DNA of 54,204 nucleotides from Nanobdellati archaeon (lineage in GTDB: Archaea; B1Sed10-29; JAGVWA01). Both the position numbers and the translations under genes were made by a program. The stretch is taken from NCBI GenBank assembly GCA_018304505.1, contig JAGVWA010000014.1:1-54204 (forward strand), read 5' to 3'. Below the pieces are notes generated by a model, which worked only from the letters and a program-made list of their open reading frames with translations, had not been told where the DNA came from and did no database searches. How positions within the stretch are numbered: position 1 is the first letter of the stretch; the number at the start of each line of letters is the position of its first letter. Of the stretch, positions 17,496 to 45,577 are shown in pieces.

Positions 17496-17839
17496 TAAGA
17501 GGGGCTTCGCCCCTTCTATCCCTGAAGCACTGCATTCGGCTTCGCCGAAGCAGAGCGGTTCTTTGGTTTTGAAAAACAGGGGTTTTCAAATTTGATAAAC
17601 GCGTAGCGTTCTGTCAAATGCAGCTTTCTTTTTAAGAAAGGTGCAAGCACCACCCTCAGCGTCAAAGGGCTTCGCCTACAACAAAACATGATTTTGTTGA
17701 GGCCTCAAAGAACTACGTTCTTTGCAGACCCTCTTGACACCTGCGGCGCATCAAGCATAGCTTGATGCACCTGTTTTTGGTGCGTCGAGGTGCCACAGTA
17801 AGGCTTGGCGCCATGGTTTTCTTTTCAACAACGCGTTTG
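17496..17839. repeat. Hairpin-string element after tRNA-Ser
   Basis: This 344-bp gap holds no convincing gene. It is a chain of short near-perfect inverted repeats, for example GGGGCTTCGCCCC, TTCGGCTTCGCCGAA, a GAAAAAC/GTTTTC hairpin, TTGATAAACGC-GTA-GCGTT (about 17596-17622), CAAAGAAC/GTTCTTTG and CATCAAGC/GCTTGATG. Several modules recur after tRNA-Thr (20236-20390) and inside the tRNA-Leu intron (40160-40314). A 23-bp block at 17510-17532 is identical to 20355-20377. Confidence 0.75.
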
Positions 17840-20235: not shown

Positions 20236-20391
20236 TAGGGGGGCTTCGCTTGCAAGGAAACGAAGTTTCGTTGAAGATTTGAAAAACAGGGTTTTTCAAA
20301 TTTGACAAACGCGTAGCGTTCTGTCAAGTCTCAAGGAACTCAATTCCGTGCAGACCCCTTCTATCCCTGAAGCACTGTCACCATCGAGCTA
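20236..20391. repeat. Hairpin-string element after tRNA-Thr
   Basis: The gap holds inverted repeats that match those after tRNA-Ser: an AAACGAAG/TTTCGTT-type hairpin, TTTGAAAAAC/GTTTTTCAAA, TTTGACAAACGC-GTA-GCGTT (about 20300-20328), and CTCAAGGAACT/TTCC with GCAGACCCC. The 23-bp block at 20355-20377 is identical to 17510-17532. Module order differs from the tRNA-Ser copy, which suggests shuffling. No coding frame is visible. Confidence 0.75.
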
Positions 20392-27586: not shown

Positions 27587-27740
27587 TGCACCTAGCGGGA
27601 TTTGAACCCGCGCCACAAGCTGTTTCCCGCGGGTCTCATTAACCACTCAACCTCGCCGGAGGCGAGAGTTGTGTTTCGGGTGTCGAGAGGGGGAAACCCT
27701 TCGTTGGGAAGCTTGAGTCATGCCCCTAGACTATAGGTGC
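27587..27740 (-). tRNA. tRNA-Gly(CCC) with 83-nt intron at 37/38
   Basis: Acceptor GCACCTA/TAGGTGC, D-arm, anticodon stem CAAGC/GCTTG and T-arm GCGGG-TTCAAAT-CCCGC are intact. The loop is TTCCCA-A after removal of intron 27622-27704. The junction is a textbook bulge-helix-bulge: outer stem CAAGC/GCTTG, bulge ACA, helix TTCC/GGAA, bulge CAA. Anticodon CCC. Confidence 0.93.
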
Positions 27741-33734: not shown

Positions 33735-35408
33735 TTATTCTAGTTCGTGCGCCACCTCATCGGGTATTTCGTCTGCTTCTTCCTCAACCTCTGGTTCAGG
33801 GGCCTCTTCAAGTTCTGCACTGTACTTGGCCTCAATTATCTGTCGCAGTTGCGATTCAAGCCTTTCGGCGCTCTCTCCGGTTATCTTTGCAAGTGAGTCC
33901 GCTACTGGTTTTATGTACATCTCGAGCGTCTTTTTCTTCTGTTCCTGCTCGTACATCTTCTTCTTGCCGGCCACGTATCTGCCGACCTTTCTGCCGACTT
34001 CCATCAGCGCAAGCCGGATTTCCTTTAGCACTTCATCTTCGCTGGCGATGCTTTGCTTTCCAGCGCCAGTGTACGGCACATGGATGCTCGTGAAGTTGAC
34101 CATTATTGTCAGCGGATTTTCAGGTCTGATTTCATAGCGTTTCCAGTCAACGCTTTGTATTGCCTTTGTGATTGCGCAGCCTCCCGAGTCGAACAATAAC
34201 GGCGTCCTGTTTGCAAATCGCATGATTTCGATGTTGTCCTTTTTGGCTTCCCCGAGCTGTTCAAGTTCAGCTTCGCCTACCTTTCCTGATTTTCCCCCGT
34301 AGGCAATGGCAACTTCTATTTGGAATGGGACCCCTCCGCGGAAGATGCCGGCGGGCCTTGTGAGGATGTCCTTGAATTCGGGCGTCAGGATGTTCTCTAG
34401 GGCTTTTTCTAGGTTGTTTTGACCAATGGGAATCAAAACATCGGTCGGTGGGGCGATGAAGGAAATTTTTTCAATGGCTTGGCAAACCTGTTCTGCTTCT
34501 TCCCACCTCAAGTCTTGCGGGCGCTTGTTCATGTCGAACGCAACCCTGTCTTGGATTTCCTTGGTCTTTGCATTACTCATCCTGGTGAATTCTGACTCAA
34601 GGAATGAAGCCACGCTCCGTGCCTTGGTTTTTGTTGCATAGGCCATTAAGTCGCTTGTCTCAAGGCCCTTTGGGTGGGGCTTTGCCTCCTTTGGCTGTTT
34701 TGGGATCTGCCCAGATGCCCGGTCATAGACCGTTGTAATGCTGTCAGGGTCCATATACGTCAGCTTGGCGTGTGGGTTTACGAGCATTGTTCTTCTGATG
34801 TATTCATCAGGGCCTTGTTCTGATTTTTGGTACAGCACGTGTTTCAGTTCTGTCTCTACCCTTGTTCCGCGCATCCTGCCTGAATATATTTTCTCGTCGC
34901 TTATGGCGGCCGAGTTTGTCTTTAAATCAATGGCCACGCGCATTTCGTGTACCTCATTGTTGCCCTGCCCGGTGATGATTTTTGTGGGCTTGCCTGTTGT
35001 CTCCTGCGCGAACATGACTGCGCCAGCAGCCCCGATGCCTTGTTGTCCGCGGGCCTGCTTAAAAACATGAAACTTGGTTCCGGCCAACATGGTGGCGAAT
35101 ACCTTGCCAACAAGTTTTTTCGGTATACCCGGACCATTGTCTTCTACAATTAGCTTGTAGTGTTCATGGCCGAGCTTGTCCAGCTTTACGTAAATTTCCG
35201 GGAGGATGCCTGCTTCTTCGCATGCATCAAGTGCGTTGGTAACGTATTCGTGTATAACCGTCGTTAGGGATACGATCTTTCCGCTGTAACCGAGCATTTG
35301 CCTGTTTTTCTTGAAGAACTCTGCTACGGAGTGCTCTTTGAAATCTTTGTGGATGTTGATTGTTTTTTCTGTGGGTGCTGATTGTGCCTCTGCCACTGAT
35401 AAAGTCAC
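33735..35408 (-). CDS. top6B: DNA topoisomerase VI subunit B
   Basis: Top6B is the GHKL ATPase subunit that gates strand passage. The 557-residue protein has Bergerat-fold boxes: EYVTNALDACEEAG (box N), VEDNGPGIP (box G1), and GQQGIGAAGAVMF (box G2), followed by the H2TH and transducer domains. The C-terminus is acidic. The start overlaps the KH-protein stop by four bases. Confidence 0.97.
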   Translation of the reverse strand: MTLSVAEAQSAPTEKTINIHKDFKEHSVAEFFKKNRQMLGYSGKIVSLTTVIHEYVTNALDACEEAGILPEIYVKLDKLGHEHYKLIVEDNGPGIPKKLVGKVFATMLAGTKFHVFKQARGQQGIGAAGAVMFAQETTGKPTKIITGQGNNEVHEMRVAIDLKTNSAAISDEKIYSGRMRGTRVETELKHVLYQKSEQGPDEYIRRTMLVNPHAKLTYMDPDSITTVYDRASGQIPKQPKEAKPHPKGLETSDLMAYATKTKARSVASFLESEFTRMSNAKTKEIQDRVAFDMNKRPQDLRWEEAEQVCQAIEKISFIAPPTDVLIPIGQNNLEKALENILTPEFKDILTRPAGIFRGGVPFQIEVAIAYGGKSGKVGEAELEQLGEAKKDNIEIMRFANRTPLLFDSGGCAITKAIQSVDWKRYEIRPENPLTIMVNFTSIHVPYTGAGKQSIASEDEVLKEIRLALMEVGRKVGRYVAGKKKMYEQEQKKKTLEMYIKPVADSLAKITGESAERLESQLRQIIEAKYSAELEEAPEPEVEEEADEIPDEVAHELE

Positions 35409-39961: not shown

Positions 39962-40145
39962 TTTTGGTGCGCCCCTGAAGGTGCAGGGAGAAATTCAGAA
40001 CGCCCAAATTTGCATATGGGCGTTTGCTGCCCCGTTGCGTAGCAACGGTGCGGATCTGCTTTTCTACAGCAAATTTGCTGAGAAATCGAAAAAGCTTTGC
40101 TTTTTCGTATTTTCCCCAAGCTTTTGCCAGTGGGCAAAAGGCTGG
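39962..40145. repeat. Hairpin string downstream of tRNA-Leu
   Basis: On the minus strand, just after the tRNA-Leu 3' end, lie consecutive hairpins: CTTTTGCC/GGCAAAAG, CGAAAAAGC/GCTTTTTCG, CAGCAAATTTGCTG, CCGTTGC/GCAACGG and AACGCCC/GGGCGTT. No coding frame fits. It resembles the DNA after tRNA-Ser in style. Confidence 0.65.
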
Positions 40146-40422
40146 TGCAGGGAGAGGGAGTTTCCCAAGGAAGCCCATCTGCCCCTAAAAACCATGGCAC
40201 TTCGCCGCAAGGCGAAGGTGGCATTTCAGGACTTGACAGAACGCTTGCGCGTTTGTCAAGCCCGAAAAAACCCTAGTGGGTTTTTTCAGGGGTCAAGGGG
40301 ATGAAATCCCTTGTTTTGAACCCTCGTAGGCACTGAGCCAATGGATGTCGCATGCGCGGCGAGCCCATTTCTGGGTTCGCCTGATCTTGAGTCCATCCCG
40401 TTTTCCGCTCCGGCATCCCTGC
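40146..40422 (-). tRNA. tRNA-Leu(CAA) with two introns, one of 155 nt in the T-loop
   Basis: Exons: 40386-40422 (acceptor GCAGGGA to CTCAAG), 40315-40346 (A38, stem TCCAT, variable arm, T-stem GAGGG, TTCAAA) and 40146-40159 (T, CCCTC, TCCCTGC, A). Joined, they give an 83-nt class II tRNA with anticodon CAA. Intron 1 (40347-40385, 39 nt) is at 37/38. Intron 2 (40160-40314) sits in the T-loop between positions 59 and 60. Its borders form bulge-helix-bulge: T-stem, helix TTC/GAA, bulges AAA and ACT, helix CAAGG/CCTTG. A TATA box near 40448-40456 precedes it. A standard tRNA scan would probably miss this gene. Confidence 0.85.
40160..40314 (-). repeat. Hairpin-module intron of tRNA-Leu
   Basis: The intron is a row of hairpins: CAAGGG/CCCCTTG, GAAAAAACCC/GGGTTTTTTC, CTTGACAAACGC/GCGTTCTGTCAAG and CTTCGCC/GGCGAAG. 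The third module matches those after tRNA-Ser and tRNA-Thr almost base for base, in the same orientation relative to the tRNA. Confidence 0.75.
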
Positions 40423-45467: not shown

Positions 45468-45577
45468 GGTCGCCATAGCGTAGCTTGGTAGCGTTAGAGA
45501 CTGTGGATCTCTAGGGCCGGGTTCAAATCTGCAATGAGTTTCAATGAACTCCTGCGGTGAAAGTCCCGGTGGCGGCC
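45468..45577 (+). tRNA. tRNA-His(GTG) with 36-nt intron in the T-loop
   Basis: G-1 pairs with C73; acceptor GTCGCCA/TGGCGGC, anticodon arm AGAGA-CTGTGGA-TCTCT (GTG) are intact. The T-stem CCGGG/CCCGG encloses an intron at 45528-45563, between positions 59 and 60. The borders form a perfect bulge-helix-bulge: helix TTCA/TGAA, bulges AAT and AGT, inner helix CTGC/GCGG. Splicing yields loop TTCAAAT. The encoded G-1 is typical. Confidence 0.94.

What the first reader, a model, noticed from the sequence alone, without database searches (positions are those of the whole stretch)
40146..40422. tRNA-Leu(CAA) split by two introns, one a 155-nt hairpin chain in the T-loop
Exons assemble to a perfect class II tRNA only if a 39-nt intron at 37/38 and a 155-nt intron at 59/60 are removed. 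The T-loop intron borders form a bulge-helix-bulge with inner helix CAAGG/CCTTG. T-loop introns are known in some archaea, but I know of few this long or so structured.
Basis: partly seen in the sequence, partly recalled or inferred. Interest (0 to 1): 0.75.

Follow-up and report, generated by a model that had tools for sequence, protein, structure and literature searches.

The report
tRNA gene with mobile T-loop intron
A leucine tRNA gene of an uncultured archaeon is cut by a 155-base intron in its T-loop; near-copies of this intron sit in other tRNA genes, and pieces of it lie just after many tRNA genes, so it looks like a mobile kind of insert that the tRNA splicing machinery can remove from any tRNA.

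Summary
The exons at 40422-40146 form a perfect 83-nt class II tRNA-Leu(CAA) once a 39-nt intron (37/38) and a 155-nt intron (59/60) are removed. The genome is an archaeon of the Diapherotrites lineage, with about 34 introns in 42 catalogued tRNA genes. The T-loop intron has a homologue of the same length at the same site in tRNA-Gln(CTG), and one with the same ends but another interior in tRNA-Gln(TTG). These are the only Gln tRNAs found, so T-loop splicing must work. A same-order relative (G005) has at least 21 tRNA genes with T-loop introns; one family of 7 sits in 7 different tRNAs, including the Leu(CAA) orthologue. Parts of the window's long introns recur as hairpin arrays directly 3' of other tRNA genes. 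In five genomes such inserts can end in a copy of the tRNA's own 3' end (positions 57-73): 15 of 94 genes, against 0 of 94 upstream. I read the intron as a BHB intron from a spreading insert family that uses the universal T-loop UUCR as half of its splice motif. Splicing is inferred; how the inserts move is unknown. It is a new variant of known tRNA intron transposition.

The parts
40386..40422 (-). tRNA-Leu(CAA) exon 1, positions 1-37
   Evidence: 26 of 26 first bases identical to tRNA-Leu(TAA) of the same genome
40347..40385 (-). 39-nt intron at 37/38; relaxed BHB with a U.C mismatch in the central helix
40315..40346 (-). exon 2, positions 38-59, with class II variable arm and T-stem 5' strand
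40160..40314 (-). 155-nt T-loop intron at 59/60; closing stem plus three hairpins; homologous to the T-loop intron of tRNA-Gln(CTG)
40317..40320 (-). UUCA (positions 54-57): exon half of the central BHB helix
40162..40165 (-). GGAA near the 3' end of the intron: intron half of the central BHB helix
40146..40159 (-). exon 3, positions 60-73
39991..40145 (-). hairpin-array trailer directly 3' of the tRNA; 84.6% over 123 nt to the long intron of the tRNA on C3 read as Arg(GCG)
39980..39991 (-). TCTCCCTGCACC: partial copy of the tRNA-Leu 3' end closing the trailer
45468..45577 (+). tRNA-His(GTG) with a 36-nt T-loop intron (45528-45563), perfect BHB
17496..17745 (+). trailer of tRNA-Ser(CGA): same hairpin family; 81 nt are 97.5% identical to part of the T-loop intron of tRNA-Gln(TTG)
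20236..20377 (+). trailer of tRNA-Thr(CGT): same hairpin family, 83.7% over 43 nt with the Leu(CAA) T-loop intron
27587..27740 (-). tRNA-Gly(CCC) with an 83-nt anticodon-loop intron that shares a 41-nt module (82.9%) with the Gln(TTG) T-loop intron

Best explanation
This is a working tRNA-Leu(CAA) gene with two bulge-helix-bulge introns. The 155-nt one is a T-loop intron of a family that spreads among tRNA genes in one order of Diapherotrites archaea. How it works: the T-loop sequence UUCR (positions 54-57) is nearly the same in all tRNAs and forms the 5' side of the central BHB helix. The intron brings the rest: a 3' end of the type YGAA-NN (GGAA here) and a closing stem that forms the inner helix. 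Such an insert is therefore spliceable in nearly any tRNA. EndA should cut after position 59 and before position 60, and RtcB should join the exons, leaving a structured and perhaps circular RNA. Shown: exons, motif, predicted structure, homologues in other tRNAs, the same site interrupted in the orthologue, the enzymes' genes. Inferred: splicing itself; that introns and 3' trailers are one family of insert; that the interior grows by taking up hairpin modules. Not known: how copies move.
For: Perfect tRNA after removal of both introns. Homologous 155-nt intron at the same site in tRNA-Gln(CTG), E 2e-60; tRNA-Gln(TTG) has the same intron ends with another interior. Both Gln genes found carry it and no uninterrupted Gln gene was found. 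BHB in Gln and His is 4/4 central and 5/5 inner. In the Leu/Gln pair all but one of 55 pairs stay paired in both, with one double change A-U/G-C in the closing stem (two sequences, so weak). G005: 21 T-loop BHB introns of 34-125 nt; the same scan with the 3' partner slid by 3 or 7 bases gives 0-8. A G005 family has 7 copies, all in T-loops of different tRNAs, including the Leu(CAA) orthologue, with a U-A/C-G double change in the closing stem. EndA and RtcB genes present.
Against: No RNA data. The Leu(CAA) T-loop motif has one A.G mismatch and the 37/38 motif one mismatch, while the only EndA found looks like the alpha4 type, without the extra loops tied to relaxed specificity (PMC12397907). 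Leu(UAA) could read UUG codons by wobble, so need for this gene is not proven. The link of introns to trailers rests on shared sequence and shared boundaries, not on an observed insertion.
Confidence: 0.78

Rival explanations
1. The gene is a pseudogene: an element has broken tRNA-Leu(CAA) and no mature tRNA is made.
For: No spliced RNA is available; the T-loop BHB has one mismatch; Leu(UAA) could cover UUG codons by wobble.
Against: All stems intact; both Gln tRNA genes carry the same type of intron and must work; the Leu(CAA) orthologue in G005 also keeps intact exons round a T-loop intron.
Confidence: 0.06
2. The intron is kept because the excised RNA has its own job, for example as a guide or regulatory RNA; the T-loop is only its host site.
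For: Very stable fold, z about -7 for the Gln(CTG) copy; one double change in the closing stem.
Against: No Rfam family matches; Gln(TTG) has a different interior with the same ends; the interior changes in length and content within one family in G005 (76 to 125 nt), so the interior seems exchangeable.
Confidence: 0.12
3. Old T-loop introns were inherited vertically in this order and only converge in sequence by gene conversion between tRNA loci; there is no mobile insert, and the 3' trailers with duplicated tRNA ends are unrelated.
For: Leu(CAA) has a T-loop intron in two families of the order; no tyrosine recombinase and no Cas1 in the own genome.
Against: T-loop introns sit in largely different tRNA sets in G000 and G005 and none were found in the loci examined of G003 and G004; one family is in Val, Leu, Pro and other tRNAs; trailers and introns share long near-identical stretches.
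Confidence: 0.25
4. Assembly artefact: repeats in a metagenome-assembled genome joined wrongly.
For: The assembly is in 21 contigs and the intron is repeated in the genome.
Against: The two copies differ at about 20 of 155 sites, mostly near the 3' end, each is closed by its own tRNA's exon 3 and acceptor strand, and a T-loop intron stands at the same site in an independent genome.
Confidence: 0.03

Closest known systems
Archaeal BHB tRNA introns at noncanonical positions, 59/60 included (PMC4090602, PMC8450103)
   Same: BHB at the borders; removal restores a canonical tRNA; 59/60 is a listed site; EndA and RtcB present.
   Different: Archaeal tRNA introns are described as relatively short, under 100 nt (PMC4033280); here 148-155 nt in the T-loop. 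Known hot spots are Crenarchaeota, Thaumarchaeota and Nanoarchaeota, not this lineage.
[quoted passage not shown]
   Same: Near-identical introns at the same position in different isotypes of one genome.
   Different: Other phylum; concentrated on the T-loop in G005; parts of the intron also occur as 3' trailers, some with a duplicated tRNA 3' end.
Intron gain by integration of a mobile element, Caldiarchaeum tRNA-Thr (PMC3293823)
   Same: tRNA fragment repeated beside a tRNA gene together with an intron.
   Different: There a 1.8-kb insert with a recombinase gene and a 5' tRNA fragment; [quoted passage not shown]
Casposons at tRNA 3' ends (PMC6614799)
   Same: Target at the 3' end of a tRNA gene, a recognised TCAAATC motif (T-loop), direct repeats made from the target.
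   Different: 14-15 bp duplication, terminal inverted repeats and a Cas1 gene; here about 17 bp from position 57 to 73 (about 65 in one case), no inverted repeats seen, no Cas1 in G000 or G005.

Membership tests
Archaeal BHB tRNA intron | Removal gives a canonical tRNA | tested here: met
Archaeal BHB tRNA intron | Bulge-helix-bulge at both borders | tested here: met
   T-loop intron 3/4 central and 5/5 inner; 37/38 intron relaxed, with one mismatch
Archaeal BHB tRNA intron | Splicing endonuclease and RtcB ligase genes in the genome | tested here: met
Archaeal BHB tRNA intron | Excision seen in RNA | not testable with these tools
   no RNA data
Transposing tRNA intron (Thermoproteales type) | Homologous introns at the same position in different isotypes of one genome | tested here: met
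   own genome; G005
EndA with relaxed specificity (CSL or ASL loop, or alpha-beta heteromer) | Extra loop or second subunit | tested here: not met
   one 171-aa chain, aligned with M. jannaschii EndA without an insertion of that kind; sequence only
Element integrated by tyrosine recombinase at tRNA 3' ends | Direct repeat of the tRNA 3' end round the insert | tested here: met
   15 of 94 genes in five genomes, 0 of 94 upstream, 2 of 1826 other-gene pairs; for the Leu(CAA) trailer only 12 bases
Element integrated by tyrosine recombinase at tRNA 3' ends | Integrase gene in the genome | tested here: not met
   no PF00589 hit in G000; not searched in the relatives
Casposon | Cas1-type integrase | tested here: not met
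   none in G000, G001 or G005
Casposon | Terminal inverted repeats | tested here: inconclusive
   none obvious by eye in the listed inserts; no systematic test

The most novel reading that the evidence does not exclude
A family of small non-coding hairpin inserts spreads in the 3' halves of tRNA genes in this archaeal order. In one state the insert leaves the tRNA whole, with a second copy of the 3' end (57-73) beyond it; in the other the proximal copy is lost and the insert is removed as a T-loop BHB intron. Repeated rounds lengthen the introns by whole hairpins. tRNA introns would then be arising from mobile inserts in present-day genomes.
Probability: 0.35. Interest if true: 0.82.

Novelty: new variant of a known kind. 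Interest (0 to 1): 0.64.

Why it matters
How tRNA introns arise and spread is an old open question. Here a set of related genomes shows the same T-loop site empty, filled by short introns, filled by long hairpin introns, and next to inserts that end in a copied tRNA 3' end. It also offers a reason for the T-loop: it is the one place where the exon half of the BHB is the same in nearly every tRNA. ARAGORN missed the gene and Rfam's tRNA model did not reach its cut-off there, so tRNA sets of such archaea are likely to be undercounted. An apparently alpha4-type EndA beside many noncanonical introns would be a direct test of the accepted link between EndA type and intron position.

Tried and rejected
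Rfam for a known RNA in the intron: nothing near any cut-off. C/D and H/ACA guide motifs by eye: none convincing. Tyrosine recombinase and Cas1 as local mobilisers: absent from the own genome. Homologues of the own trailer family in 18 relatives of the class: none at DNA level. A model from the G005 intron family gives 7 hits in own loci, all tRNA trailers or introns, but weak (E 0.05-1.2), and mostly tRNA loci were searched apart from the window. Resemblance of the element's first module to the T-arm and acceptor strand of tRNA-Leu: the best match is a Leu tRNA for all four modules tried, but only two of them beat most shuffles (6 and 10 of 400 do as well), the other two are at chance, and random hairpins come close; left as an idea. 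Covariation of position 57 with its intron partner: Fisher p 0.07, not enough. First genome-contig scan with the Rio kinase gave nothing.

Full report
OBSERVATION. On the minus strand, 40422 to 40146, the sequence reads as tRNA-Leu(CAA) with exons of 37, 32 and 14 nt, a 39-nt intron at 37/38 and a 155-nt intron at 59/60. ARAGORN misses the gene as it stands but calls tRNA-Leu(CAA) once the 155-nt insert is removed. A blind search over BHB-compatible introns returns the same two introns as its best solution. The T-loop motif has five outer pairs, a central helix UUCA/GGAA with one A.G mismatch, and the inner helix CAAGG/CCUUG; 193 of 200,000 shuffles do as well. The insert folds as a closing stem with three hairpins.

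SETTING. The genome has 917 kb in 21 contigs, 92.8% complete. The named close relatives of its EndA are mostly Diapherotrites. In 42 tRNA genes catalogued, roughly 34 introns could be read (several D-loop borders are approximate, and the count was made by hand), about 0.8 per gene. For comparison 0.84 is reported for Thermoproteales and 0.21 for archaea at large (PMC8450103). No second tRNA-Leu(CAA) was found.

THE INTRON IS SHARED. A DNA search of the own genome with the gene finds a 145-nt match at 94% in contig C3. It is the T-loop intron of tRNA-Gln(CTG), also 155 nt and at the same site. tRNA-Gln(TTG) on C14 has a 148-nt T-loop intron with the same first and last bases but another interior. 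These are the only Gln genes found, so the organism must splice this site. tRNA-His in the window (36 nt) and a class II tRNA with anticodon TAC on C15 (43 nt) also have T-loop introns. Of the 55 pairs of the Gln fold all but one are kept in the Leu copy, with one double change A-U/G-C, but two sequences cannot carry much weight.

A RELATIVE FULL OF T-LOOP INTRONS. In G005, another family of the same order, 21 tRNA genes have a T-loop BHB intron of 34-125 nt; the same scan with the 3' partner slid by 3 or 7 bases gives 0 to 8. One family has seven copies in that genome, all in T-loops of different tRNAs. One of these is tRNA-Leu(CAA), the counterpart of the gene in question, with a 79-nt T-loop intron (L224 1390-1592). 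Within this family the Val(TAC) copy has two more hairpins than the others, and the closing stem shows a U-A/C-G double change. No T-loop introns were found in the loci examined of G001, G003 and G004; for G003 and G004 these were only the best-scoring tRNA loci, so the absence is not proven for the whole genomes.

INTRONS AND TRAILERS. Directly 3' of many tRNA genes of the own genome lie arrays of short hairpins. A search with one of them hits almost only tRNA neighbourhoods. The long introns are made of the same modules: the Gln(TTG) T-loop intron matches the Ser(CGA) trailer at 97.5% over 81 nt; the long intron of the C3 tRNA that I read as Arg(GCG) (position near 25/26, read by hand) matches the Leu(CAA) trailer at 84.6% over 123 nt; the Gly anticodon introns share a module with the Gln(TTG) T-loop intron. 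[quoted passage not shown] The same holds in G001, G003, G004 and G005: over the five genomes 15 of 94 genes with an intact T-loop have such a copy within 300 nt downstream, none of 94 upstream, and 2 of 1826 pairs of different genes. Within one genome the base sequence just before the copy is alike across isotypes, for example AACAGAAAAGGCTT or close to it in three tRNAs of G003, while the copy itself matches the host tRNA. In the G005 Leu(CAA) locus the repeat is longer, about 65 nt, and includes the 3' splice region.

MECHANISM PROPOSED. The T-loop UUCR is the exon half of the central BHB helix and is nearly universal, so an insert that ends in YGAA-NN and closes with a stem can be spliced from any tRNA. 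I think T-loop introns and many trailers are two states of one kind of insert: with a proximal copy of the 3' end the tRNA is whole without splicing; without it, splicing is needed. This step is inferred. What moves the inserts is unknown: the own genome has no tyrosine recombinase and no Cas1.

A TENSION. The only EndA found is a 171-aa chain like that of M. jannaschii, without an insertion like the CSL or ASL loops that are tied to relaxed specificity (PMC12397907). The Gln and His T-loop motifs are canonical in shape, so an enzyme that reads only the BHB could cut them. The Leu(CAA) motifs have one mismatch each. This is a prediction to test, not a refutation.

COMPARISON AND VERDICT. Noncanonical archaeal introns, the 59/60 site and intron transposition are known (PMC4090602, PMC4033280), and integration of a mobile element as a source of intron gain has been proposed for Caldiarchaeum (PMC3293823). 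New here are the length and structure of the T-loop introns, their concentration in one order of Diapherotrites, the shared modules with 3' trailers, and the copied tRNA 3' ends. The literature held here is open-access only; a description elsewhere cannot be excluded. I rate it a new variant of a known kind, interest 0.64.

Noticed in passing
L119 (G000 C15, around 34100-34280, minus): A class II tRNA with a 17-nt variable region but anticodon TAC (Val), in addition to a class I Val(TAC) on C3; it has a 43-nt T-loop intron.
   Followed up: partly
L120 (G000 C15:28946-28991): A lone tRNA 3' half (T-arm and acceptor strand) without a 5' half nearby; a split tRNA half or a relic.
   Followed up: no
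L074 and L075 (G001 C33 and C41): The relative G001 has two EndA-like genes, where the other genomes of the order that were searched have one clear match at most, and its tRNA genes also score weakly as if disrupted.
   Followed up: no
G005 C29:5794-7086: The RtcB gene of G005 has one TAG stop inside the matched frame.
   Followed up: no
L224 1389-1760 (G005 C33): Downstream of the intron-bearing Leu(CAA) orthologue about 65 nt, from the end of the intron through exon 3 into the flank, are repeated after a 56-nt hairpin insert; the second copy keeps the bases of the 3' splice site.
   Followed up: partly
L116 and L008 (G000 C3:73913 and C8:17496-17745): The trailer of tRNA-Ser(CGA) contains the 3' end of tRNA-Ser(GCT) with the first bases of its trailer.
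   Followed up: partly
L007 and window 45468-45577: Two tRNA-His(GTG) genes, one without intron and one with a T-loop intron.
   Followed up: no
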